Source of the DNA: Ardenticatena maritima
GTDB lineage: Bacteria; Chloroflexota; Anaerolineae; Ardenticatenales; Ardenticatenaceae
Length of the DNA: 64,000 nt
Reading direction: 5' to 3'
Assembly: GCF_001306175.1 (NCBI RefSeq)
Contig: NZ_LGKN01000004.1
Location: 558,001 to 622,000, forward strand
Shown: positions 10,755 through 44,682 of the stretch, one piece after another
How positions within the stretch are numbered: position 1 is the stretch's first letter
Layout of the letters: each line of letters opens with the position of its first letter
Notes under the pieces: generated by a model
The model's input: only the letters and a program-made list of their open reading frames with translations
Told to the model about the DNA's origin: nothing
The model's database searches: none
Made by a program: the position numbers and the translations under genes

Positions 10755-10784
10755 GCCGTGGTTGAACAACCGTAGATACGGACG

Positions 10785-10890
10785 CTCATCAAGAGGGGTG
10801 GAGGGACCGGCCCTGTGAAGCCCCGGCAACCAGCGGCAACATGCCGCCAGGTGCCAAGTCCGGCAGCCCCTGTGGGGCTGGAAGATGAGA
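10785..10890 (+). ncRNA. SAM-I riboswitch (S-box)
   Basis: The core is textbook: P1 arms CTCATC and GATGAG, then AGAGGGGTGGAGGGA, CCCTGTGAAGCCCCGGCAAC and GGTGCCAAGTCC. It lies upstream of an intrinsic terminator and an operon for SAM synthesis and recycling. Binding of SAM should stabilise P1 and allow the terminator to form, switching the operon off. The 306-base gap before mtnA is filled by the dyad, the promoter, this aptamer and the terminator. Confidence 0.96.
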
Positions 10891-10905
10891 GGAGTCAGAT
10901 GTACG

Positions 10906-19053: not shown

Positions 19054-19869
19054 CTACGCGAGTTGAACGCCCGGCTGTTCACCGCGCCAAAAACTTTCCA
19101 CCGTCTGGTTGAACCGGTTGGGTGAATCAATGGGCGTGGCGTGCCCTGAGTTGGCGATTGTTTTCAGGCGGGCGTTGGGGATACGTTGCGCCAGTTGCTG
19201 ACAGAGCACGTAGGGCACGGTGGTATCTTCTTCCCCGTGAATGACCAGGGTTGGCACGCGCAGGGTGGGCAACCGGTCGAAGGTGTCGAACGCCAGAATA
19301 GCACGCCACGCATACGCCACCGAGCGGCGATCATTGCGGGCAATCAGCGCAGCGGCTTGCGTGCGCAGAGCGGCTTGTTCGGGTTTGGGGAACATGCGGC
19401 GCGCCACTTGCCGGGCGTAGACGCGCATCGGCGCCACACGGAGCAGCCATGAACGCCACCACAGGCGCAGACGGTCGCGCAGAGAGCGAGGGCGCGGCAA
19501 GCGGGCGAAGGTGTTGACCAGTACCAAATCGCGCACCAGGTCGGGATGGCGCAGGGCGAATTCTTGCGCCACCATGCCCCCCATGGACAACCCCACTCCA
19601 TGCACCGGCCCAACGCCCAAATGGCGCACCAGCGCGGCGACCTGGTCTGCCATTTCGGCGATGGTAATGGGGGCGCGGAGCGGGGGCGAATCGCCGTGCC
19701 CCGGCAAGTCGGGCACAATCAAAAAATAGCGCGACCGCCACGCTTCGACCTGGAGCCGCCACATGTCGCGGCTTGCGCCCAAGCCATGCAGCAGCAACAC
19801 CGGTTCGGCTTCCGGGTTGCCATGCACTTCATAAAAAAGGCGTATCCCGTTCTGTTCAAAAAGCGGCAT
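19054..19869 (-). CDS. Alpha/beta-fold hydrolase
   Basis: The 271-residue protein has the alpha/beta hydrolase layout: oxyanion strand LLLHGLGASRDMWRLQ, LIVPDLPGHGDSPPL, the nucleophile elbow GVGLSMGGMVAQEF (Ser), the acid region VPTLVIHGEEDTTVP (Asp) and the catalytic histidine in ANSGHATPIDSPNRF. Substrate is not predictable; relatives include lipases, haloperoxidase-like enzymes and 3-oxoadipate enol-lactonases. The ATG at 19869 follows GGCGAGGAGGG. It is transcribed away from the histidine kinase gene next door. Confidence 0.85.
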   Translation of the reverse strand: MPLFEQNGIRLFYEVHGNPEAEPVLLLHGLGASRDMWRLQVEAWRSRYFLIVPDLPGHGDSPPLRAPITIAEMADQVAALVRHLGVGPVHGVGLSMGGMVAQEFALRHPDLVRDLVLVNTFARLPRPRSLRDRLRLWWRSWLLRVAPMRVYARQVARRMFPKPEQAALRTQAAALIARNDRRSVAYAWRAILAFDTFDRLPTLRVPTLVIHGEEDTTVPYVLCQQLAQRIPNARLKTIANSGHATPIDSPNRFNQTVESFWRGEQPGVQLA

Positions 19870-19967
19870 GGTATGTTTCCCTCCTCGCCAAAGATGTGTA
19901 CCATAATGCAAGTAGAGGTGGACGGGCGGCGTCCAAGTCAAGCAATCTCTATGCAGAGGAGCATAGC

Positions 19968-20648
19968 ATGACCGACAAGAACACACTCGCTTCACGTCGC
20001 ATTCTCTCAGTGACCGAAGAAGAGTTGAGCCGCATTGTGCTTGACATTCACGACGGCCCCGTCCAATACATGTTTGCCGCACTTTCACTTCTCACGCAAC
20101 TTCAACACCAACTTGAACAAGAAAACGCTTCGCCCAAAGCATTAGAGCGTGTCGAGCGCATCACGCGCCTGGTTGAGTCATCGTTGCGCGAAATCAAATC
20201 ATTCCTCGGGACGTTCCGCCCACCAGAATTCCACAAACGCTCGCTTCTTTCAATCGTCCAAGGGCTGGTCATTCAGCACGAAGAATGGACGGGCAACACG
20301 GTCACGCTGGAAGTTGAAGAGCCGCTCCCTGAGGTGACCTTGCCCGTCAAAATTGCGCTCTACCGCATTCTGCAAGAAGCGCTGTCCAACTCCTATCGCC
20401 ATGCGGGCGTCAAGGAGCATTGGGTCACACTCTGGGCGGAAGACGATTGGGTCTGCATGGAAGTGGTTGACCGCGGGCGCGGTTTTGAGCCGCCGCCGCT
20501 GGAAGGCCCCGGTGCAACTGAACGTGAGGAACATATCGGCTTGCGCGGCATGCGCGACCGTGTGGCATTGCTTGGCGGTGTTTTTGAACTGTACAGCAAA
20601 CCCGGTGAAGGAACACGAATCAAAGTAAAGGTGCCCAGCAATGGCTGA
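19968..20648 (+). CDS. Soluble NarX/DegS-type sensor histidine kinase
   Basis: The 226-residue kinase has no membrane segment or recognisable sensor. It starts with the HisKA_3 dimerisation helix, phospho-acceptor histidine 28 in IVLDIHDGPVQ, and continues with a HATPase domain: LYRILQEALSNSYRHAG (N box), VVDRGRGFEPP (G1) and HIGLRGMRDRVALLGG (G2). The ATG at 19968 follows AGAGGAGC. It overlaps the response regulator gene by eight bases, so the two form a pair. The stimulus is unknown and must come from a partner protein or an internal cue. Confidence 0.88.
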   Translation: MTDKNTLASRRILSVTEEELSRIVLDIHDGPVQYMFAALSLLTQLQHQLEQENASPKALERVERITRLVESSLREIKSFLGTFRPPEFHKRSLLSIVQGLVIQHEEWTGNTVTLEVEEPLPEVTLPVKIALYRILQEALSNSYRHAGVKEHWVTLWAEDDWVCMEVVDRGRGFEPPPLEGPGATEREEHIGLRGMRDRVALLGGVFELYSKPGEGTRIKVKVPSNG

Positions 20649-21279
20649 CATCATCAAAGTCATCCTCGCAGACGATCACGCGCTCGTTCTGGAAGGATTA
20701 CGCGGCTTACTCGAAGAAGAGCCGGATATCGAAGTGGTCGGCGTCGCCCAAAGCGGCGACGAACTGCTGAACCTGCTGGAAACCCAAGAAGCCGACGTGG
20801 TTGTGCTCGACCTGCAAATGCCCTACCACGGGCTCAGTGCGCTGGAAGAAATCCGTCGCCGCAACCTGCCCGTGCGTGTGCTGGTGCTGACGGCTTTCGG
20901 CGACGGGGAGAGCATTCAATCGGCTATCGAACGCGGGGCGGAAGGGTTTGCCCTCAAAACCGAACCCCCGCGCCAAACCGTCGAAGCCATCCGCCAGATT
21001 GCCGCGGGGCGGCTGGTGTTCCCCCGCGCCGCACAACGCTGGCTTTTGGCTTCGCTCCAACCGCAACGCCAACCCCAACCATCGCAGCAATCCATCCTCT
21101 CACCACGCGAGTGGGATGTGCTGGCACTGGTGGCGCGCGGGCTCACCAATCCCGAAATTGCCAATGAACTCCATCTGAGTGAAAATACAGTGCGCTTTCA
21201 TTTGAAAAACATCTACGAGAAACTGGGTGTGAGCAACCGCACGGAAGCCGCCGCCTGGTATTTCCGGCACTCCGGCTGA
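20641..21279 (+). CDS. NarL/LuxR-type response regulator
   Basis: The 212 residues consist of a receiver domain (DDH acidic pocket near 11-13, phospho-acceptor Asp57 in VVVLDLQMP, Thr in VLVLTAFGD, and a lysine in FALKTEPPRQ) and a C-terminal LuxR helix-turn-helix. The latter contains LSPREWDVLALVARGLTNPE, IANELHLSENTVRFHLKNIY and EKLGVSNRTEAAAW. It is translated by overlap with the kinase gene. Target genes are unknown, but a set of direct repeats lies 25 bases downstream of its stop, in front of the CRISPR-associated operon. Confidence 0.93.
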   Translation: MADIIKVILADDHALVLEGLRGLLEEEPDIEVVGVAQSGDELLNLLETQEADVVVLDLQMPYHGLSALEEIRRRNLPVRVLVLTAFGDGESIQSAIERGAEGFALKTEPPRQTVEAIRQIAAGRLVFPRAAQRWLLASLQPQRQPQPSQQSILSPREWDVLALVARGLTNPEIANELHLSENTVRFHLKNIYEKLGVSNRTEAAAWYFRHSG

Positions 21280-21457: not shown

Positions 21458-22096
21458 ATGATTGCTTTTATTCTCTTTGGTACGCGTGGGGTAACAACAA
21501 CAAAAGCCTCCGGGGATTTTTTCTGTCCCGCATGTGAAAGCCGACAACCATACAAACATCAAATAGTCCGGCGCTATTTCACACTCTACTTCATTCCGCT
21601 CTTACCGCTTGAAACATTAGGGGAATACATTGAATGTCAGACATGCAAAGGCACATACAAACTCAATGTTCTCAATTATGATCCCGATCAAGCCGCAAAG
21701 CGTTTTTGGCAAAAATTCCAACAGGTCACGCGCGATGTCCTGTTCTTGATGGCTCGTACAAACGATCGTATCTATTTGGAACAAATCCGAACCATTTGCG
21801 CGTTCTCTGAACATGCCCTCGGACTTTCTTCTACACCACAAGAAACCCAGCGCGAAATTCTTGCAATGGAGACAAGCCCACGCGCTGTTGTTGACGCACT
21901 CACTGAGATTGCAACAGACCTTAATGACAAAGGCAAAGAACTCATTCTCAGAGGAGCATTTCTGGTTGCATTAGCCGATGGTGACTTGAGTGAAGAAGAA
22001 ATGAAATTTATTACGGCTATTGGGCTTGCACTTCAAATGTCCCAATACCATGTTCGTGCTGTCCTCGACGAGGTTATTGAAAAGTTGAATGAATGA
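21458..22096 (+). CDS. Zinc-ribbon/TerB-like protein, first gene of the cmr operon
   Basis: The 212-residue protein begins with a zinc ribbon (Cys23/Cys26 in FFCPACES and Cys60/Cys63 in IECQTCKG) separated by a hydrophobic strand (RYFTLYFIPLLPLETLGEYI). The C-terminal third (about 150-210) resembles TerB-type helical domains, with GAFLVALADGDLSEEEMKFI as the acidic metal-site-like motif. TerB-like domains occur in stress and phage-defence settings. Only 18 bases separate it from cmr2 and both share orientation, so co-transcription is likely. Base composition is visibly AT-richer than the flanking genes, which suggests transfer. Function is not known. Confidence 0.6.
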   Translation: MIAFILFGTRGVTTTKASGDFFCPACESRQPYKHQIVRRYFTLYFIPLLPLETLGEYIECQTCKGTYKLNVLNYDPDQAAKRFWQKFQQVTRDVLFLMARTNDRIYLEQIRTICAFSEHALGLSSTPQETQREILAMETSPRAVVDALTEIATDLNDKGKELILRGAFLVALADGDLSEEEMKFITAIGLALQMSQYHVRAVLDEVIEKLNE

Positions 22097-22114
22097 AAAA
22101 TAGGGAGCCTGCAC

Positions 22115-23830
22115 ATGAGCACCAAATACCTCTTCATCTGTTCCATCGGTCCCGTGCAAGACTTCATCGCCGCCGCCCGCAGTAGCCGCGACCTCACCTA
22201 CGGGTCGCACTTGCTGAGCGAATTAGCCAAGACGGCCGCACGCACCATTGCTGACAAAGAGAGCTTCGACGCACTCATCTTTCCAGCGCCAAAGAGCAAA
22301 AAAGACCTTGATGAAAATAGCGCTCTCTCGGTCGCCAACAAGGTGGTGGCGGTGGTGTCAGGCGAACCGCAGGGCTTGGCGGACACTATCGAAGAGGCGC
22401 TGCGTGCATTCATCCTAAACGCCTGGCACCCCATCGAAGACAAGTTGCAAAACGACGTGGATAAAGCACTGGCACGCTGGCAACTCAAAGACCTGCTCGA
22501 ATTCTACTGGGTGGCGGCGCCACTTGAGGGGAAGTACGAAGAGGTGCGCGCTACGTGCGAAGCCGCCCTCAGTGCCCGCAAAGCCACGCGCGATTTCCGG
22601 CGGTACACGGGCAAACCGCGCTTCAAGTCGTCTATTGACGGCTGGCGCGAGCATGTGCTGGAGCAACTCCCCAACACGGCTTCCAGCCCGACCGACAAGC
22701 AGATGAAGCGCTACAAGATGCGCAATGGGGAACTGCTTTCAGGGGTGGACCTGCTGAAGCGCTGGGGCGGGTTGGAACTCAGTGCTACGTACAAGAGCAC
22801 AGGGCACATGGCGGCATTGCCGTTCGCCGAAGGACTGGCGCAAAACGGCGTCAATGTCCATGAGTTGTATCAAGCCCTCGAGGACCTCATAACTGACAAT
22901 GATGGCAACCTTTTTGCGAAAGACGACTACAGCGTCTTCTTCCCGGCAGAAGTGCGCGCCGCATTCGATGACAAAGAGAAGGCCAAAACTGTTTTAGAGA
23001 AACATGAACGCCTGCTGAGCCAGTATGCGGGCACACGCCGCCCATCGCCATACTACGCCCTCCTCCTGGCCGACGGTGACTCTATGGGCAAGGCGATTGA
23101 CGCCCAAACATCGCCGGCAGCGCACCGCGCGCTTTCGCAAAAGTTGAGCGAATTTGCGCAGGAAGTCCCCAAGATTGTGAGACAGTACCGCGGCGTGCCC
23201 GTGTATGCCGGCGGCGACGACATCCTGGCCTATCTGCCACTTCACACGGCGCTGGAATGCGTGCGTGAATTAGCCGAAACGTTCCAAGAGATGATGAGCG
23301 CATTCACATTCGATGAGAATGGTCAGCAGAAATCGCCCACGCTCTCAGCCGGTTTGGTGATCACACACCACCTGGAACCGCTGCGCGATGCGCTGGCGCT
23401 CGTGCGGGCGGCTGAAAAAAGCGCCAAGACCGTTGCGGGCAAAAATGCGCTCGCCATCACGCTCAACAAACGCAGCGGCGCCGACCGCACGGTGAAAGGC
23501 AACCTGTTTGCATTGATCGAACGCCTGCAAACGATGCGAGGATGGTGGTTGAATGAGACGTTGAGCAAGGGCACCGCCTATGAACTGGAACGACTGGCGC
23601 GTGATATGGAAGGCGTTCTGCCTGCTGAGGCGCTTGCCGCCGAAGCTGTGCGCATTTTGAAACGTAAGCGAGAATCAGGCGGGAAAGAAAAGGTCAAGCA
23701 AGAGGTGATTGACCAAATCGAAAACTGGCTGAAGAAGGAGCAAATCAAATTGCACGAACTGGCGCAAGAGATGATTGTCGCCAACGAATTGGCGCGAGCC
23801 AGCAAACAGGCGCAAGGAAAGGAGGCGTGA
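22115..23830 (+). CDS. cmr2: Type III-B CRISPR Cas10 subunit Cmr2, HD domain absent
   Basis: Cmr2 is the large subunit of the type III-B RNA-targeting complex and makes cyclic oligoadenylates on target binding. The 571 residues start directly with the first palm motif (GPVQDFIAAARSSRDLTYGS, near 12-31). They contain LLLADGDSMGKAID near 317-329 and the second-palm cyclase motif YAGGDDILAYLP, with GGDD at 366-369. No N-terminal HD nuclease domain precedes palm 1, so target-activated DNA cleavage is not expected. The cysteines of the usual zinc finger are not seen either. It begins the core of the operon; its stop overlaps cmr3. Confidence 0.92.
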   Translation: MSTKYLFICSIGPVQDFIAAARSSRDLTYGSHLLSELAKTAARTIADKESFDALIFPAPKSKKDLDENSALSVANKVVAVVSGEPQGLADTIEEALRAFILNAWHPIEDKLQNDVDKALARWQLKDLLEFYWVAAPLEGKYEEVRATCEAALSARKATRDFRRYTGKPRFKSSIDGWREHVLEQLPNTASSPTDKQMKRYKMRNGELLSGVDLLKRWGGLELSATYKSTGHMAALPFAEGLAQNGVNVHELYQALEDLITDNDGNLFAKDDYSVFFPAEVRAAFDDKEKAKTVLEKHERLLSQYAGTRRPSPYYALLLADGDSMGKAIDAQTSPAAHRALSQKLSEFAQEVPKIVRQYRGVPVYAGGDDILAYLPLHTALECVRELAETFQEMMSAFTFDENGQQKSPTLSAGLVITHHLEPLRDALALVRAAEKSAKTVAGKNALAITLNKRSGADRTVKGNLFALIERLQTMRGWWLNETLSKGTAYELERLARDMEGVLPAEALAAEAVRILKRKRESGGKEKVKQEVIDQIENWLKKEQIKLHELAQEMIVANELARASKQAQGKEA

Positions 23831-25005
23831 TGAGCAACAGCATGAAGACATGGCGGGTGGTTCCCCACGACCCGCTCATCTTCCGAGACGGCAAACCGTT
23901 CACGGCAACGCCGGGCGCACGCGCAACGTCCGTGCCCTTCCCGTTTCCCTCCACATTGGCCGGGGCGGTGCGCACATTGAGCGGAGCACTGGAAAATGGT
24001 GGTATTTTCCCAAAGAAAAACAACGACGCGCTTGTCCAAAAGGTGCTGGCGTATCCGGTGGCGGGGCCCTTTCTCTTCGACACACGACGGCAACAGGTGC
24101 TCTTCCCCGCCCCGCAAGACGCCCTGTTGGTCAAACTTGAACCGCACGACGAAACCAAGGCGCAACAAGTACCCTTGCACCCCACAACGCGCTTCTCGAA
24201 TGTGCTAACAAACATGCCGGATGGCTTGCAATTGGTTGCGCCGGTTGAAACCGTCAAGGCCAAGCGCCATCCCAACGCGCCTGCCTTTTGGTACTGGGAG
24301 AAGATCGAAGCATGGTTGAAGCACCCGACGCCGGCAACGGTCACGTTGAGCGCTCTTGGCATTCACACCCTGCCAACGGATTACCGCACGCACGTGAGCA
24401 TTCAGCACCAAAGCGGCACCGCAGAAGAGGGCGCGCTCTTCCAGACGGCGGGGCTCACTTTCGTGCATGCGCCGCGCAAGGAGAAACGCCCCGACTTGGA
24501 TGAAGCCGCCGAGTTAGCGCTCCTGCTGCAAACAGACGCGCCGATTGGGGCCACCATGTGGACACTGGGCGGGGAGCGCCGCCTCGCCGCGTGGGAAGAG
24601 CAGAACGATACATTGCCCACGTGCCCGGAGGAGGTGCAAACCGCCATTCAGCAGAGACGGCGGGGGCGGCTCATTCTGGCAACACCGGCGCATTTCACGG
24701 GCGGTTTTCTGCCCACGTGGGTGTGCGAACATCCAAGCGGGGTGAAACTGCGCATTGTGGGGGCAGCCGTGGGGCGGCCGGTGCATGTGTCAGGCTGGGA
24801 TTACCAGAAAGGCAAACCCAAAATTACGCGCCGCCTGGCGCCCGCCGGAAGTGTCTATTTCTTCGAGATTGTCGAGGGGGATGAAGCAGCCATCACGCAA
24901 TTCATCAATGCCGTCTGGCTGCGCCCTATCAGTGATGAAGAGCAAGATCGCCGCGACGGCTTTGGCGTTGCCCTGCTGGGCACGTGGAACGAGAAGGAGG
25001 CATGA
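23830..25005 (+). CDS. cmr3: Type III-B CRISPR subunit Cmr3 (Cas5 family)
   Basis: Cmr3 caps the crRNA 5' end in the Cmr complex. The 391-residue protein begins with the family signature VVPHDPLIFRDGKPF, then PFPFPSTLAGAVRTLSG, a typical Cas5-type RAMP start. Later come FQTAGLTFVHAPR and the glycine-rich VGRPVHVSGWDYQKGKPK, characteristic of Cmr3 C-termini. The ATG at 23830 overlaps the cmr2 stop (TGATG), with AAAGGAGGC upstream. Length agrees with the family. Confidence 0.9.
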   Translation: MSNSMKTWRVVPHDPLIFRDGKPFTATPGARATSVPFPFPSTLAGAVRTLSGALENGGIFPKKNNDALVQKVLAYPVAGPFLFDTRRQQVLFPAPQDALLVKLEPHDETKAQQVPLHPTTRFSNVLTNMPDGLQLVAPVETVKAKRHPNAPAFWYWEKIEAWLKHPTPATVTLSALGIHTLPTDYRTHVSIQHQSGTAEEGALFQTAGLTFVHAPRKEKRPDLDEAAELALLLQTDAPIGATMWTLGGERRLAAWEEQNDTLPTCPEEVQTAIQQRRRGRLILATPAHFTGGFLPTWVCEHPSGVKLRIVGAAVGRPVHVSGWDYQKGKPKITRRLAPAGSVYFFEIVEGDEAAITQFINAVWLRPISDEEQDRRDGFGVALLGTWNEKEA

Positions 25006-25006
25006 G

Positions 25007-26317
25007 ATGCTGAGCAACCGCAAACCACCAGCGTTTTCACCACCTGGGGTTCACCCCAAAGATGGCCGAATCACACAGGTGCGCACATACAAACTCATCA
25101 CCCCGCTGTACGGCGGTGGGGCTGAAACGCAAAAACCCGACGAAGTGACTGTGGTGCGCGCCAGTGAAATTCGCGGGCTGCTGCGCTTCTGGTGGCGCGC
25201 TACTCGCGGCGGGCAGTTCGACGGATCGCTGGCCAAAATGCGCGCTGCCGAGGAGGCTATTTGGGGCTCGGCCGCCGGAGAGAGCAAGGCGGGGCCGTCG
25301 CCGGTGGCGCTGGCTGTGCGTATTCTCAAACGTGGGCAGAAAATGGAAGATGTTTCCATACGAACACGGAGAGGCAACCAGCGCGTCAACATTGGCGACC
25401 CTCGATCTCCTTACGGATATGTTGCGTTTCCATTGCGCGACAGCCGAGGAAGTGTCTGGAAAGACGTTGAATTTGAGTTGCACATCACCATCAATCGCAC
25501 CAATGTTCAAGGCGGCGGTAAAACGCTCAATGTGCAAGAAGAGGTCGAAGCCGCGCTCTGGGCGTGGGAGACATTTGGCGGCGTGGGCGCTCGTACGCGC
25601 CGCGGGTTTGGGGCGTTGCAGTTGACCAAAATTGATGGTCAATCTGTCCATGAACCCACAGCCAAAGAAGTCGAATCATATGTACGGAATGGGTTGCACA
25701 AATATGTGCGTGGCACGCAATGGCCCTGCGGTGTTGCCCATCTTACATCTGACATGATGTGGAAAATTACCAATCGCCACAACGATGCAGACGCAGCATG
25801 GCAGTATTTGTTCAAAAGCCTCAAGGATTTTCGTCAGGCACGCTATCCAGACAGCAAAAACCGCCCATTTGGCCGCAGTAAATGGCCAGAACCAGACGCC
25901 ATTCGGCGGATTACAGGCACTTCTTCGCCAGGGCATGCGCCCCAGCATCCAGTTCGAGATAAGTTTCCACGCGGTCAATTTGGGCTTCCAATCATCTTTC
26001 AGTTCAAGGAAGATGATGAGAAAAACGGCGACCCACCCAAAACGGTACTTGAAGGCGCACAACACGACCGTTTCGCCAGCCGACTGATTCTACGTCCCCT
26101 CGCCTGCCAAGGTGGAGCCGTCGGCTTGGCTTGTGTACTGGAAGGACCCAAAGACCCGCCCGGCGGGTATGTATTGAAACAACAAAGCAATGGGCAAGTC
26201 CTTGCGCGGCCGAATGTTGACCTGACGAGGCAAGACGCACTGAAAATTGGACCACTCAACGGCGAACCCGATGTTCTGAAAGCCTTTCTGAAAACCCTTG
26301 GATGGAAAGAGGAGTGA
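25007..26317 (+). CDS. cmr1: Type III-B CRISPR subunit Cmr1 (Cas7-like RAMP)
   Basis: Cmr1 sits at the crRNA 3' end of the complex and assists target recognition. The 436 residues contain KLITPLYGGGAETQKPDEVT and VVRASEIRGLLRFWWRATRG, the diagnostic Cmr1 start, and the glycine-rich loop WAWETFGGVGARTRRGFGAL. The C-terminal half (AWQYLFKSLKDFRQARYP, RFASRLILRPLACQ) completes a tandem RAMP layout. The ATG at 25007 lies one base after the cmr3 stop. Confidence 0.92.
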   Translation: MLSNRKPPAFSPPGVHPKDGRITQVRTYKLITPLYGGGAETQKPDEVTVVRASEIRGLLRFWWRATRGGQFDGSLAKMRAAEEAIWGSAAGESKAGPSPVALAVRILKRGQKMEDVSIRTRRGNQRVNIGDPRSPYGYVAFPLRDSRGSVWKDVEFELHITINRTNVQGGGKTLNVQEEVEAALWAWETFGGVGARTRRGFGALQLTKIDGQSVHEPTAKEVESYVRNGLHKYVRGTQWPCGVAHLTSDMMWKITNRHNDADAAWQYLFKSLKDFRQARYPDSKNRPFGRSKWPEPDAIRRITGTSSPGHAPQHPVRDKFPRGQFGLPIIFQFKEDDEKNGDPPKTVLEGAQHDRFASRLILRPLACQGGAVGLACVLEGPKDPPGGYVLKQQSNGQVLARPNVDLTRQDALKIGPLNGEPDVLKAFLKTLGWKEE

Positions 26318-26321
26318 AATC

Positions 26322-27173
26322 ATGCAAGCCAAACTGATCTTCTTACACGCGTTGTCCCCCTTGCACGCCGGCACCGGCCAGGGCGTTGGTGCCATTGACC
26401 TGCCCATCGCCCGCGAAAAAGGCACTGAAATCCCCATCGTACCCGGTTCCAGCCTGAAAGGTGTGCTGCGCGATGCTTGTCAGGCGCTCCACGGCAATGG
26501 CACCTGCACGCGCATTTTCGGTCCCGACACGGACAACGCCTCTGCGCACGCCGGCGCCGTCATCCTCACCGACTTGCGCCTGGTGGCTCTGCCGGTCCGC
26601 TCGCTGGCGGGCGTCTTCGCCTGGGTGAGTTCGCCCTTTCTGTTGCAACGCCTGGCCCGTGACGCGCAGATGGCGGGCTTAAGCGATGCCCCCAAAGAGC
26701 CGTCGGTGGCAAATGCTCAAACCGTGCTGGTCAGCAGCACCAGCACCATCCAGGTCAACAATGCTGAGGTGGTGCTGGAAGATGTGAAGTTGAATGCGCA
26801 AACGCAAGCCGATACGTGGGCGAATTGGCTTGCGCCCAAGGTCTTCGCTGACGAAGGCTGGCAAGCCAGCTTCAAAGCCCGCTTTGCCATCGTCCACGAC
26901 GATGTGATGGCCTACCTGCTCCAAGTCGCAACCGACGTCACGGCCCGCATCCGTCTGGAAGATGACACGAAGACGGTTGCTCAAGGTGCGCTCTGGTACG
27001 AAGAAGCCTTGCCCGCCGAGAGCATTCTGGCCGGGTTGGTGGCTGCGCAGCCGAATGGAGAAGCCCAACCCGATGAAGTGTTCGAGAAGGTGAGCGAACT
27101 CGCCCAGCATCCGCTGCAAGTGGGCGGCAACGCCACCGTGGGACGCGGCCTGTGCCGCTTGAGCCTTGCGTAG
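26322..27173 (+). CDS. cmr4: Type III-B CRISPR subunit Cmr4 (Cas7 backbone, target RNase)
   Basis: Cmr4 forms the backbone along the crRNA and cuts target RNA every six nucleotides. The 283 residues open with LHALSPLHAGTGQGVGAIDL. The aspartate at residue 26 sits at the same position as the catalytic Asp26 described for Pyrococcus Cmr4. IPIVPGSSLKGVLRDAC is the standard RAMP motif, and the C-terminus has PLQVGGNATVGRGLCRL, the glycine-rich loop. The ATG at 26322 follows AAGAGGAGTG. Intact active-site geometry predicts RNA cleavage. Confidence 0.94.
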   Translation: MQAKLIFLHALSPLHAGTGQGVGAIDLPIAREKGTEIPIVPGSSLKGVLRDACQALHGNGTCTRIFGPDTDNASAHAGAVILTDLRLVALPVRSLAGVFAWVSSPFLLQRLARDAQMAGLSDAPKEPSVANAQTVLVSSTSTIQVNNAEVVLEDVKLNAQTQADTWANWLAPKVFADEGWQASFKARFAIVHDDVMAYLLQVATDVTARIRLEDDTKTVAQGALWYEEALPAESILAGLVAAQPNGEAQPDEVFEKVSELAQHPLQVGGNATVGRGLCRLSLA

Positions 27174-27183
27174 GAGGGACACC

Positions 27184-27555
27184 ATGCGCACATTGGAACA
27201 AGAATTGGCCGCAACCATTTACGAGCAAGTATCACGTCTGCAAACCGACGAAGAACGCGCTAAGGAGTATGGTGGCATGGCGCATAAACTGCCGGTGCTC
27301 ATCCGCCAGGCGGGGCTGGTACAGGCGCTGGCCTATGTGGCGGCGCGGGGCAAACCGGGCGCCAAGCAACTGTTGGAAGACCTCGCGGCGGCGCTTGGAG
27401 AGGATTCAACAGACGATTTGTTGCAGCGATCACGCGAAGACAACCTGCTCGAATACATGCGTCTGACGCGCGAAGCCACCATCGCGCTCACCTGGTACAA
27501 GCGCTTCGCCCAATCGGTGCTGGGTGTGGAGTCGACAGAGGAGGTTCGAGAATGA
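27184..27555 (+). CDS. cmr5: Type III-B CRISPR small subunit Cmr5 (Cas11)
   Basis: Cmr5 is the small alpha-helical subunit that forms the belly filament of the complex and contacts target RNA. The 123 residues are predicted all-helical, with GGMAHKLPVLIRQAGLVQAL AYVAARG as the family hallmark and TREATIALTWYKRFAQSVLG at the C-terminus. The ATG at 27184 follows GGAGGGACACC. The stop overlaps cmr6 by four bases. Confidence 0.88.
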   Translation: MRTLEQELAATIYEQVSRLQTDEERAKEYGGMAHKLPVLIRQAGLVQALAYVAARGKPGAKQLLEDLAAALGEDSTDDLLQRSREDNLLEYMRLTREATIALTWYKRFAQSVLGVESTEEVRE

Positions 27556-28637
27556 GCATCTCTGAACGAAGCTTCTTTTTTGCACGGCGTCAGACCCTCG
27601 CAAACGTCCAATTGAATCAAGCACGCTTCCCACATGCAGGTCTCTGGCTGGATAAATTCTTGCCCAAGCAGTTCGCACAAGGTAAATCAGAGGGGGAAGG
27701 CGCTTACCGCGATCACTTTGAACAAGCCGTCAAAATTCCTGTCGCGGACGTTTACACCTCCGCCTTCAACCGCTGGAAGCATACACTCGAAGCAAGCGGC
27801 ATCAAAACCAAGGTGGCAACCACGCAAGGGCGGCTCGTGGTCGGCTTGGGGGCGGAGAGCGTGCTCGAAAACGCCATCACCCTGCACCGCACCTACGGCG
27901 TACCTGTCATTCCAGGCAGTGCGCTCAAGGGGCTTGCCGCAGCGTATGCCCGCAACCGCCTGGCTGAGCCGGCTTGGCAGAAGGGCGGCGAAGCGTACAA
28001 AACCCTTTTCGGCGACACCGAGTCGGCCGGCTACGTCACCTTTTTCGACGCGCTGTATGTGCCTGATAGCGTCAAAGATAACCGCCCCCTCGCGTTGGAT
28101 GTCGTGACCGTTCACCACCAAGAGTACTACCGGGGCGAGAAGAGCCCACCAGCCGACTGGGACAGCCCCAACCCGGTGCCCTTTGTCAGCGTACGCGCCG
28201 GGGTGAAGTTCCTGGTGGCGCTTGCCGGGCCGGAAGAATGGGTCGAAGCCGCGTTCCAGATTTTGGGGCTGGCGCTGGCCGAGGAAGGCATTGGCGCGAA
28301 GACCAACAGCGGCTATGGGCGGATGGTGCTGGAAGGGTATGCGAAAGGGGTAGCGAAAACAGCAGAGCCACGCGAAACATATCACCTGGCAAAATTGCGC
28401 CTTCTCAAACAAGAAACACCCCCCCCTGGACGATCTCGTGGCGAAGTTGTCGAAGTACGTGGCCGATATGGGTTTATCAATCCCGCTCAAGGTGGCGGCA
28501 AAATCTTTGTCCACGTAAGTCAACTTCAATCAGGGGCTACATCCTTGCAAGTTGGCCAAGTGGTTGAATACAGCTTAGGAAAATATAAAGGTCAAACACA
28601 AGCCCAGAAAGTTGATGTGTTGTTAGAACCAGATTGA
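27552..28637 (+). CDS. cmr6: Type III-B CRISPR subunit Cmr6 fused to a cold-shock domain
   Basis: Cmr6 is the terminal Cas7-like subunit. Residues 1 to about 280 have the RAMP features GVPVIPGSALKGLAAAYARN, LFGDTESAGYVTFFDALY, LDVVTVHHQEYYRGE and the loop GIGAKTNSGYGRMVLEG. After a short linker, residues 297-358 match a cold-shock/OB fold: GEVVEVRGRYGFINP (RNP1-like GRYGFI at 304-309), GGGKIFVHVSQL (RNP2-like IFVHVS at 318-323) and LQVGQVVEYSLGKYKGQTQA. Cold-shock domains bind single-stranded nucleic acid, so the tail may add RNA binding at the crRNA 3' end. The reading frame is continuous, without a stop between the parts. It overlaps cmr5. Confidence 0.88.
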   Translation: MSISERSFFFARRQTLANVQLNQARFPHAGLWLDKFLPKQFAQGKSEGEGAYRDHFEQAVKIPVADVYTSAFNRWKHTLEASGIKTKVATTQGRLVVGLGAESVLENAITLHRTYGVPVIPGSALKGLAAAYARNRLAEPAWQKGGEAYKTLFGDTESAGYVTFFDALYVPDSVKDNRPLALDVVTVHHQEYYRGEKSPPADWDSPNPVPFVSVRAGVKFLVALAGPEEWVEAAFQILGLALAEEGIGAKTNSGYGRMVLEGYAKGVAKTAEPRETYHLAKLRLLKQETPPPGRSRGEVVEVRGRYGFINPAQGGGKIFVHVSQLQSGATSLQVGQVVEYSLGKYKGQTQAQKVDVLLEPD

Positions 28638-28663
28638 TACAAGATGAAAAAGAGGAGGTTGCG

Positions 28664-29815
28664 ATGAACAATCAATCTAAACTGATTGTTTCACCTGTAG
28701 GCATCAGTCTGCTTTTGAACTATGCATCGCAAATTCGCCAAGATGGTAATCTGAGAAAGCAATTCCTGGATTGCAGTAACGAGAAAAATTTGCCACAGGA
28801 ATTAGCAGGTCAGGTAGAAGAATTGTCTGAGGAAATTTTAACTTACCTCATTGACGCAAATGTCGAGACGCGTCGAAAACTAAGTGCAGAGCTGAATGGC
28901 TTATATGGTTTGTTTCCCAACGGTCAGTTTTCCAAATCCGATACGCATATCCTCATTGCGACCGATACCGAGTTAGGGCAAACGACTGCCCGGATTCTGG
29001 AAGAATTTTTGCGTGAGCATGGTGTACAAAACATTCAAATCATTTGCCCGTCAGGTTTGCAAACAAAAGACGAAGTACAGTTCCGAAGGGCTATCCGAGA
29101 ATTGTTCGCCGACTTAGAAAGTATTTTACCTGAATATAAAAACAAGGTGTACCAGATTACTTTCAATCTGACGGGAGGTTTCAAAAGCCTGTATAGCTAT
29201 CTCAGCATTGTGGGGATGTTTTATGGCGATAAAATCGTGTACATTTTTGAAAACGGAAAATTGCTTTCCATTCCCAGGCTCCCACTAAGAATTGACGATT
29301 CGCAACTACGCCAACCAGAACAAGCCGTACAACTTGCCTTGCTAGCGGCAGGGCACATCTACCGCCGAAGCGACATTCAATTGCCAGGAGCGCTTTGGGA
29401 AGAAGATGAAAAGGGAGACGTGACGATCTCGGAATGGGGGCAACTGATTTGGGACCAGGTGAAAAACGACATCCTTTCCAAGGGTTTACTTCCATTTCCT
29501 TACTTAGAATATGAGAGCACTTTTCGGAAAGATTTTGAAAAGGCCACGCCAGAACAACGAATCCGTCTGCAAGAAACATTGGCAAAGGTCAGCAAAATAC
29601 TCCTTGAACACCAAGGAAATATAAAAGCACTCAAGGAACACGGAGGACTTCAGTATGACAATTATACAAATAAATCACTTCCAGATGGTACTCCTATTGG
29701 CCATTTCCGAATCAATGAAGGTGACCGAGTGACATGCATCGCTGTTGGTGGTAAATTGTATTTACGTCATTTTGGTTCTCATGATTATACCGAAAGTAAA
29801 GAGGGAGTTCGATGA
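28664..29815 (+). CDS. CARF-RelE fusion: cyclic-oligoadenylate-activated toxin (Cami1-like)
   Basis: The 383-residue protein starts with a CARF domain of the APE2256/Csm6 type: [12 protein letters not shown] (8-19), [17 protein letters not shown] (96-112) and [16 protein letters not shown] (167-182). The middle is helical. Residues from about 285 to 376 look like a RelE/HigB-type RNase: [20 protein letters not shown], then [18 protein letters not shown] and [15 protein letters not shown]. The characterised CARF-RelE protein Cami1 is a ribosome-dependent mRNase switched on by cOA, so a similar role is inferred here. The ATG at 28664 follows AGAGGAGG. It is AT-richer than the cmr genes and overlaps csx15 by four bases. 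Confidence 0.78.
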
Positions 29816-30207
29816 TTGTTCTTAACTTTTCTCACCCCATCACAGATGAGCAAAAGTCACAAATCGAGGCGCTTACCGGCCAATCTGTTGAGCGCATCGT
29901 TGCGATTAACAGTCAGATTGATACCGAACAACCTTTAGCCCCCCAAATCGTTGCTATGGCCGACGCATGTGGGCTGTCACAAGAAGAATGGCAAACCCTG
30001 CCTCTCCTCATCAACCCACCCGCCCTCAATTTCAGCGCCGTGGCGTTGCTGGCCGAACTGCACGGCCGCATGGGCTACTTCCCCCCCGTCCTGCGGCTCA
30101 AGCCCGTTCTGGGGCCCGACGGCCAGCGTGTCGTCCCCCCTCGCTTCGCCGTTGCAGAAATCCTCAACCTCCAAGCCATCCGCGACGAAGCGCGCGCACG
30201 GCGCTGA
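29812..30207 (+). CDS. csx15: CRISPR-associated protein Csx15
   Basis: The 131 residues begin with [20 protein letters not shown] and contain [20 protein letters not shown] and [20 protein letters not shown], the pattern of Csx15 proteins found beside type III loci. Csx15-like proteins have been proposed to bind or degrade cyclic oligoadenylates, which would damp the signal; no catalytic residue can be assigned from sequence. Start and stop overlap as ATGA with the CARF-RelE gene, so the two are co-translated as an effector-modulator pair. The first half is AT-rich like its neighbour and the second half GC-rich like the genome. Confidence 0.7.
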
Positions 30208-34574: not shown

Positions 34575-34596
34575 GCAGACCAAACGTCAGGACTGC

Positions 34597-34697
34597 CTCC
34601 GTTTCCCTGCGCTGGCATGACCCAGATCAGGTTCGTAGGGTCGGTGGCGGATACGGCCACCCTCTCAGCCCGGCTCCCCGGACTCCCCTAACGGAGA
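34597..34697 (-). ncRNA. TPP riboswitch (THI element)
   Basis: On the minus strand the conserved CCGGGCTGAGAGGG, GACCCTACGAACCTGATC and TGGGTCATGCCAGCGCAGGG elements appear in order, closed by P1 arms CTCCGTT and AACGGAG. With TPP bound, the terminator at 34549-34574 should form and reduce thiC-operon transcription. Confidence 0.97.
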
Positions 34698-34725
34698 CGG
34701 CATATACAGTTGTCAAGGCAGGAGA

Positions 34726-44453: not shown

Positions 44454-44526
44454 AGCCACCGGTCGGACTCGAACCGACGACCTGCTCATTACGAGTGAGC
44501 TGCTCTACCGACTGAGCTACGGTGGC
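44454..44526 (-). tRNA. tRNA-Thr (anticodon CGT)
   Basis: 73 nucleotides with a complete cloverleaf: acceptor GCCACCG/CGGTGGC, D-arm GCTC/GAGC, anticodon stem GCTCA/TGAGC with loop CTCGTAA, and T-loop TTCGAGT. CCA is not encoded. Confidence 0.97.
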
Positions 44527-44532
44527 ATCCAG

Positions 44533-44604
<72 letters not shown>

Positions 44605-44609
44605 TTGAG

Positions 44610-44682
44610 TGCTGAGGCCCAGACTCGAACTGGGGACCCCCGCGTTTTCAGCGCGGTGCTCTACCAACTGAGCTACCTCAGC
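44610..44682 (-). tRNA. tRNA-Phe (anticodon GAA)
   Basis: 73 nucleotides, acceptor GCTGAGG/CCTCAGC, anticodon stem CCGCG/CGCGG with loop CTGAAAA, T-loop TTCGAGT. It is the first tRNA of a Phe-Gly-Thr cluster transcribed on the minus strand. CCA is not encoded. Confidence 0.97.

What the first reader, a model, noticed from the sequence alone, without database searches (positions are those of the whole stretch)
21458..30207. Compact signalling-type III-B CRISPR operon with CARF-RelE effector, Csx15 and a TerB-like leader gene
Eight CRISPR-associated genes run without a break, from an HD-less but GGDD-bearing Cas10 to a CARF-RelE toxin and Csx15, preceded by a zinc-ribbon/TerB-like gene 18 bases upstream. 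The layout predicts RNA-triggered cOA synthesis, ribosome-directed mRNA cleavage by the effector, and signal damping by Csx15. The combination of all these parts in one transcript looks unusual.
Basis: partly seen in the sequence, partly recalled or inferred. Interest (0 to 1): 0.85.

Follow-up and report, generated by a model that had tools for sequence, protein, structure and literature searches.

The report
Type III-B CRISPR operon, Cami1-like effector
A bacterium related to a described thermophile carries a compact RNA-sensing CRISPR operon whose alarm signal should switch on a ribosome-dependent RNA-cutting toxin and then be mopped up by Csx15; these parts are known, and the odd details are a cold-shock domain on one subunit and an extra TerB-like gene in front.

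Summary
Window 22115-30207 encodes a complete type III-B (Cmr) complex, a CARF-RelE effector and Csx15; a zinc-ribbon/TerB gene precedes it by 18 bases. The effector is Cami1-like: PADLOC CARF_RelE model (6e-117), and a predicted structure (pLDDT 84) whose best Foldseek matches are Cami1 chains, with YafQ/RelE toxins among the weaker matches. Csx15 passes its curated model (1.6e-51) and keeps both histidines needed for cleavage in CliCsx15. Cas10 has GGDD; no HD domain was found. The window holds no array, and the cas1 and cas6 matches lie on other contigs; crRNAs probably come from arrays elsewhere whose repeats end ATTGAAAC. The genome also has a III-A system with Csx1. Not supported: that the combination is unusual. 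Of 7 Chloroflexota genomes with a near-full-length CARF-RelE, 4 have Csx15 within 4 kb. The TerB gene precedes the operon in both sampled genomes of the genus and was not found in four others of the family; its role is unproven. New member of a known kind.

The parts
21458..22096 (+). zinc-ribbon + TerB-domain protein (212 aa), leader gene; link to CRISPR unproven
   Evidence: Pfam Zn_ribbon_15 31.1 bits (cut-off 28.9), TerB 27.6 bits (24.4); same position and 55% identity in L001
22115..23830 (+). Cas10/Cmr2, 571 aa, no HD domain found, GGDD cyclase motif at 23210-23221
   Evidence: TIGR02577 7.2e-64; Pfam palm2 1.7e-38 and Cmr2_N; GGDD
23827..25005 (+). Cmr3 (Cas5-like)
   Evidence: PF09700 5.2e-80
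25007..26317 (+). Cmr1 (first ATG at 25007)
   Evidence: TIGR01894 4.4e-16; translation
26322..27173 (+). Cmr4 (Cas7 backbone); Asp26 present, which I recall as the target-RNA cleavage residue
   Evidence: TIGR02580 4.3e-75; Asp26 seen, its role recalled
27184..27555 (+). Cmr5 (Cas11)
   Evidence: PF09701 3.5e-26
27552..28637 (+). Cmr6 with a C-terminal cold-shock domain
   Evidence: TIGR01898 2.1e-47; PF00313 CSD 9.5e-13 at residues 303-355
28458..28616 (+). cold-shock domain of Cmr6; RNP1-like GRYGFI and RNP2-like IFVHV
   Evidence: motif names recalled
28664..29815 (+). CARF-RelE effector, Cami1-like (TTG start possible at 28634)
   Evidence: PDLC01934 6.4e-117; AF2 model and Foldseek match to Cami1 8phb 2.7e-16
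29812..30207 (+). Csx15, predicted cA4 ring nuclease or sponge; His8 and His84 align to His13 and His90 of CliCsx15
   Evidence: NF040560 1.6e-51; PDB 9teu 2.2e-17 with alignment; 9TEU is CliCsx15; numbering offset 7 checked

Best explanation
It is a type III-B interference and signalling operon. Inferred steps, in order. (1) The Cmr complex (Cmr1-6) loads crRNAs made elsewhere in the genome, because the window has no array, cas1 or cas6. (2) When an invader transcript pairs with the crRNA, Cmr4 cuts it and Cas10, through its GGDD palm, makes cyclic tetra-adenylate (cA4). (3) cA4 binds the CARF domain of the Cami1-like protein and frees its RelE domain to cut mRNA at the ribosome, slowing growth. 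(4) Csx15 binds cA4 between stacked dimers and sequesters it or slowly cleaves it, ending the response. What is shown here is sequence and predicted structure only; steps 2-4 are established for relatives and inferred for this operon. The cold-shock domain on Cmr6 probably holds single-stranded RNA near the 3' seed end of the crRNA (inference). The TerB gene is an optional, lineage-specific passenger or accessory (inference).
For: All six Cmr subunits, over their curated NCBIfam cut-offs, in overlapping or closely spaced genes. CARF-RelE: whole-length PADLOC model; its C-terminal 109 residues alone match the same model at 1e-24; predicted structure pLDDT 84.3 with Cami1 8phb/8phj as the top four Foldseek matches, and YafQ, YoeB and RelE toxins among weaker ones (E 0.002-0.02, 93-106 columns). 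Csx15: curated model 1.6e-51, catalytic histidines and Arg124, Arg128, Arg131 kept (PMC13148439 Results section read). [quoted passage not shown] Csx15 is cA4-specific. Trans crRNA supply: no array in the window; cas1 (PF01867) and cas6 (PF10040) matches lie on other contigs; at least four arrays whose repeats end ATTGAAAC. The operon is conserved in a second genome of the genus, with pN/pS 0.13-0.38 in the seven operon genes tested (synonymous sites near saturation).
Against: No activity can be tested here. The second messenger (cA4, other cAn, SAM-AMP) is inferred from effector families only. Pfam does not recognise the RelE domain (best relevant match YafQ_toxin 0.18); a profile of that domain alone finds no significant PDB match; and a profile without the Cami1 sequence itself reaches only the CARF and linker part of 8phb. 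The superposition on Cami1 is loose (Foldseek rmsd 7.4-11.2; VIA-align 8.6 and 10.5). Foldseek's table gives no residue ranges, so that the toxin matches fall on the C-terminal domain is inferred. The promoter scan found no site upstream of the operon. Other Cas6 families and cas2 were not searched.
Confidence: 0.86

Rival explanations
1. The TerB/zinc-ribbon gene is a true working part of the system, for example a regulator or stress sensor that controls the operon or ties it to a membrane process.
For: 18 bases upstream of cas10, with the same GGGAGCCTGC stretch just before the cas10 ATG in L001; present with the operon in 2 of 2 genomes of the genus and not found in 4 of 4 other genomes of the family, two of which have the upstream kinase-LuxR pair with neither TerB nor these cas genes on the 5.5 and 9.7 kb of contig downstream; zinc ribbon well conserved (alignment, by eye). 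TerB domains are reported fused to WYL domains of defence systems (PMC4012209, passage).
Against: TerB half diverged (55% identity overall, highest pN/pS of the genes tested, 0.38); not found upstream in the seven other Cmr operons whose start lies inside the stretch read (L063, L065, L112, L113, L115; L149, L151); G002 of the same family has a Cmr6 match (39%) but no TerB match; the best relative elsewhere (G330) sits among genes that match none of the operon proteins and shows only the zinc ribbon in Pfam; only 2 genomes of one genus.
Confidence: 0.25
2. The operon is a degraded remnant without function, since it lacks cas1, cas6 and an array.
For: No array in the window; cas1 and cas6 matches only on other contigs.
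Against: Reading frames open, GGDD kept, nonsynonymous change well below synonymous in each of the seven operon genes tested; type III-B operons often use crRNAs in trans (recalled), and the genome has arrays with the ATTGAAAC end.
Confidence: 0.05
3. The C-terminal domain of the effector is not a RelE nuclease but another small fold.
For: Pfam does not call RelE; profile search of the domain alone gives no significant PDB match; profile without Cami1 stops before the RelE part of 8phb.
Against: PADLOC CARF_RelE model covers it; AF2 blocks of residues 281-380 have pLDDT 80-96; VIA-align pairs the model with Cami1 from residue 16 to 393; Foldseek lists YafQ and RelE toxins (M. jannaschii RelE TM-score 0.71 by target length).
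Confidence: 0.05

Closest known systems
Cami1 of Allochromatium vinosum (PDB 8phb, 8phj)
   Same: CARF domain, linker and C-terminal RelE-like domain; encoded beside a Cmr operon on a plasmid
   Different: 24% identity in the alignment; there the gene lies before cmr1 and no Csx15 is listed in the stretch read, whose gene table is incomplete; here it follows cmr6 and precedes csx15
CliCsx15 (PDB 9teu), type III-linked cA4 ring nuclease
   Same: whole-length similarity, catalytic His13/His90 equivalents and C-terminal arginines
   Different: C. limnaeum locus is type III-A (PMC13148439, Figure 5 legend); here III-B with a Cami1-like effector
Thermus thermophilus Cmr complex (TtCmr)
   Same: III-B; Cas10 without HD domain (PMC8376896, passages); T. 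thermophilus Cmr6 about 49% identical over our residues 10-261
   Different: the Thermus Cmr6 match stops at our residue 261, so no aligned cold-shock tail
CSD domain-containing protein Cmr6 (PDB 9arw and 3 further entries)
   Same: Cmr6 fused to a cold-shock domain
   Different: the cold-shock part aligns to residues 15-66 of 376 there (weak stretch, i-Evalue 3.8, but supported by the molecule name and by the RAMP part starting at 162), at the C-terminus here
CARF-RelE plus Csx15 loci of Chloroflexota G014, G377, G155
   Same: near-full-length CARF-RelE with Csx15 within 4 kb; G014 has the same order Cmr6, CARF-RelE, Csx15
   Different: no TerB match in the stretches read (the G014 stretch ends inside cas10); the G014 Cmr6 has no cold-shock match

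Membership tests
Type III-B (Cmr) CRISPR-Cas | Cas10/Cmr2 with Cmr1, Cmr3, Cmr4, Cmr5, Cmr6 | tested here: met
   each of the six passes its curated NCBIfam cut-off
Type III-B (Cmr) CRISPR-Cas | cyclase palm with GGDD | tested here: met
   residues 366-369
Type III-B (Cmr) CRISPR-Cas | cOA synthesis on target RNA binding | not testable with these tools
   needs purified complex
Cami1 (CARF-RelE) | N-terminal CARF domain | tested here: met
   PF09651 1.3e-31; structural matches to CARF proteins
Cami1 (CARF-RelE) | C-terminal RelE-fold nuclease domain | tested here: met
   PDLC01934 on the domain alone 1e-24; Foldseek and VIA-align to full-length Cami1; against: Pfam alone not significant, profile searches do not reach it
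Cami1 (CARF-RelE) | cA4 activation, ribosome-dependent mRNA cleavage, capture by the ribosomal stalk | not testable with these tools
   known for the family from PMC11229360 passages and, for the stalk, from the title of the Science 2023 paper, which was not read
Csx15 | NF040560 profile over cut-off | tested here: met
   173.8 bits, cut-off 35
Csx15 | conserved His pair and Arg cluster of the cA4 site | tested here: met
   His8, His84, Arg124, Arg128, Arg131; arginines matched to CliCsx15 by alignment and to PfCsx15 by spacing only
Csx15 | cA4 binding, filament formation, cA4 cleavage | not testable with these tools
   of two members studied, one only sequesters cA4; the conserved histidines occur in both
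TerB family | TerB domain over Pfam cut-off | tested here: met
   27.6 bits against 24.4; exactly at the cut-off in the relative L001 (24.4), whose zinc ribbon falls just below its cut-off (27.4 against 28.9)
Cmr6 with cold-shock domain | RAMP and CSD in one reading frame, conserved between species | tested here: met
   also G448 and G609 over the Pfam cut-off

The most novel reading that the evidence does not exclude
Chloroflexota Cmr complexes carry interchangeable extra domains on the C-terminus of Cmr6 (cold-shock/OB-type in some, a helical tail in others). The cold-shock version acts as a built-in RNA chaperone at the seed end of the complex, opening folded invader transcripts so that they can be sensed. 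The TerB/zinc-ribbon leader is a second, lineage-specific accessory of the same operon.
Probability: 0.25. Interest if true: 0.5.

Novelty: new member of a known kind. Interest (0 to 1): 0.33.

Why it matters
It is a clean, compact example of the cA4-Cami1-Csx15 circuit from a genome whose nearest named relative is an Ardenticatena record; A. maritima is described as thermophilic (PMC4653789, start of abstract in the listing), so a stable complex for biochemistry is plausible. The testable new points are small: does a cold-shock domain fused to Cmr6 help target capture, and does a TerB-like gene take part in type III immunity.

Tried and rejected
Unusual combination: rejected after surveying 400 Chloroflexota genomes. 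CSD-Cmr6 as unprecedented: rejected after PDB 9arw turned up and after finding further C-terminal cases in the class. The 3.6e-95 match of profile A1 to Cami1 8phb is circular, because A1 contained the A. vinosum protein, which is 8phb itself. I repeated it without that row (A3), and then only the CARF and linker part matched. A profile of the RelE part alone found no significant PDB match, and hhalign of that profile against the A. vinosum protein gave nothing. AlphaFold of Cmr6 without relatives failed (pLDDT 34) and is not used. A scan of viral contigs with the CARF-RelE profile found no relative. The tblastx part was noise; only its blastn and tblastn lines are used. Searches of the held open-access library for Cmr6 with cold-shock terms: searches gave no paper; two searches listed three papers in all, of which I opened one (PMC8376896, passages), whose cold-shock mention is a culture step; PMC5438186 and PMC4605624 were not opened. 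9ARW with Cmr6 gave no paper. Type III CRISPR with TerB listed five papers, of which I opened one (PMC4012209, passages). PMC11980606 was opened and mentions CARF only in its reference list. Two distant rows of A1 (L130, L112) were dropped from A3 and A4: L130 to avoid the circular match, L112 because its C-terminal part did not align well.
Full report
What is there. HMM searches name Cas10/Cmr2, Cmr3, Cmr1, Cmr4, Cmr5, Cmr6, a CARF-RelE protein and Csx15 in that order, all on the + strand. From cas10 on, genes overlap or follow within about 30 bases. The first gene, 18 bases before cas10, has a zinc ribbon and a TerB domain, both just over Pfam's cut-offs. Cas10 (571 aa) starts at the Cmr2_N region; no HD family was reported for it, and GGDD is at residues 366-369. 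HD-less Cas10 is common: in one survey 437 of 1113 type III loci had an HD domain (PMC11229360, passages).

The effector. The PADLOC model CARF7--CARF_RelE covers residues 15-384 at 6.4e-117, and the last 109 residues alone match it at 1e-24. Pfam sees CARF but not RelE, a profile of the C-terminal part alone finds no significant PDB match, and a profile made without Cami1 itself reaches only the CARF and linker region of Cami1 8phb. The structure predicted from an alignment of eight sequences has mean pLDDT 84.3. Its four best Foldseek matches are Cami1 chains (best 2.7e-16), followed by the CARF ring nucleases Sis0811 and SSO1393; YafQ, YoeB and RelE toxins appear lower (E 0.002-0.02, 93-106 columns). 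The table gives no residue ranges, so their placement on the C-terminal domain is inferred. VIA-align gives Cami1 Z 21.9 over 316 residues at rmsd 8.6 and Sis0811 Z 22.0. So it is Cami1-like. [quoted passage not shown] the original Science 2023 paper was not read).

Csx15. NF040560 matches at 1.6e-51, and CliCsx15 (PDB 9teu; identity of the entry) at 2.2e-17. His13 and His90 of CliCsx15, each needed for full cA4 cleavage (PMC13148439, Results section read), are residues 20 and 97 of the chain (offset 7) and align to His8 and His84 here; the C-terminal arginines are kept. PfCsx15, which has the equivalent histidines, mainly sequesters cA4, so the sequence does not decide between ring nuclease and sponge.

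How unusual is it? In 400 Chloroflexota genomes 14 match the CARF-RelE model and 66 match Csx15. Seven have the CARF-RelE model over nearly its whole length (G000, G014, G081, G091, G155, G279, G377), and four of these seven have Csx15 within 4 kb on the same contig (G000, G014, G155, G377). In G091, G279 and G081 Csx15 is absent or on another contig; the G091 gene lies at a contig end. G014 has the same Cmr6, CARF-RelE, Csx15 order; G377 is in a locus without Cmr matches, which I did not type. A partial match, G121, shows the same gene order, but its RelE part is unclear. Both loci brought by the search for related loci have the pair, one of them with the effector cut by the contig end. In the literature Cami1 loci carry a ring nuclease in 30% of cases, and Csx15 was seen in 18 loci (PMC12409355, passages). 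The pairing is therefore recurrent.

The missed feature. Cmr6 continues past its RAMP domain into a cold-shock domain (CSD 48.3 bits, residues 303-355) with RNP-like motifs. The second genome of the genus has it too (51.3 bits), and the tail looks at least as conserved as the rest of Cmr6 (alignment, by eye). Of the 30 Cmr6 loci kept from the 400-genome phylum survey, only our own aligns through the cold-shock domain; weaker matches without a kept locus were not read, except G174, whose tail resembles a cold-shock domain by eye but gives no Pfam CSD match. The others end in what looks by eye like a helical tail, an OB-like tail or nothing; the four such tails scanned gave no Pfam match. In 371 genomes of the class, the tails of G448 (52.3 bits) and G609 (33.0 bits) also pass the Pfam cut-off, G437 falls below it (17.8), and G485 and G569 give no CSD match. 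That is four genomes in three families, counting G000 and G001; not every Cmr6 of the class was scanned. PDB entry 9arw has a Cmr6 called CSD domain-containing; its cold-shock part aligns weakly to the N-terminus. [quoted passage not shown]

The leader gene. The TerB gene is in the same place in the second genome of the genus, 55% identical, against 67-87% for the six other operon genes tested and 94% for the LuxR regulator upstream. It was not found in four other genomes of the family. In two of these the kinase-LuxR pair is present with neither TerB nor these cas genes on the rest of the contig. So TerB and this operon occur together in a small sample. Against a link: one of those four, G002, has a more distant Cmr6 (39%) without TerB, and TerB was not found at the start of the seven other Cmr operons that I could read. 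In 400 phylum genomes 15 match the protein, 14 of them only within residues 3-106, mostly the zinc ribbon. G001 and L001 appear to be the same genome (equal contig length, 49938 bases), so the genus counts as two genomes.

Guide RNA supply. The window has no array. cas1 matches (3, PF01867) and cas6 matches (3, PF10040) lie on other contigs of the genome; cas2 and other Cas6 families were not searched. At least four arrays exist: three with a 37-base repeat (11, 11 and 14 spacers read; one runs to a contig end) and one with a 30-base repeat (38 spacers read); the repeats end ATTGAAAC. ATTGAAAC occurs 284 times in the genome against 26 for the reversed control; the list of places was capped. 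One array sits beside a III-A system with an HD-type Cas10, Csm2, Csm4, Csm5 and Csx1 (CARF-HEPN) and with cas6 and cas1. The Cmr complex may share those crRNAs, and Csx15 may damp signals of both systems; both are inference.

Verdict. Observation confirmed, mechanism well supported by homology, claim of rarity rejected. New member of a known kind, with two modest oddities.

Noticed in passing
   Followed up: yes
L058 8789-18100 (G000:C3 about 632.8-642.1 kb): Second type III system in the same genome: III-A with HD-type Cas10 and Csx1, with cas6 and cas1 and beside an array.
   Followed up: partly
L014-L042 and L154, C-termini of Cmr6: Many Chloroflexota Cmr6 proteins have extra C-terminal stretches of different kinds (helical-looking or OB-like by eye) without a Pfam match in those scanned.
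   Followed up: partly
19773-21279: Histidine-kinase-like protein (by eye) and LuxR-type response regulator directly upstream of the operon; the pair is also present in two related genomes without TerB or these cas genes downstream.
   Followed up: partly
10783-10891 (+), 34587-34699 (-), 44454-44682 (-): SAM riboswitch, TPP riboswitch (upstream of what looks like thiC) and three tRNA genes; ordinary.
   Followed up: no
PDB 9ylu (CbCash), residues 168-290: A solved 297-residue protein named Cash has a Csx15-like C-terminal part (1.7e-14), so Csx15 domains also occur in larger proteins.
   Followed up: no
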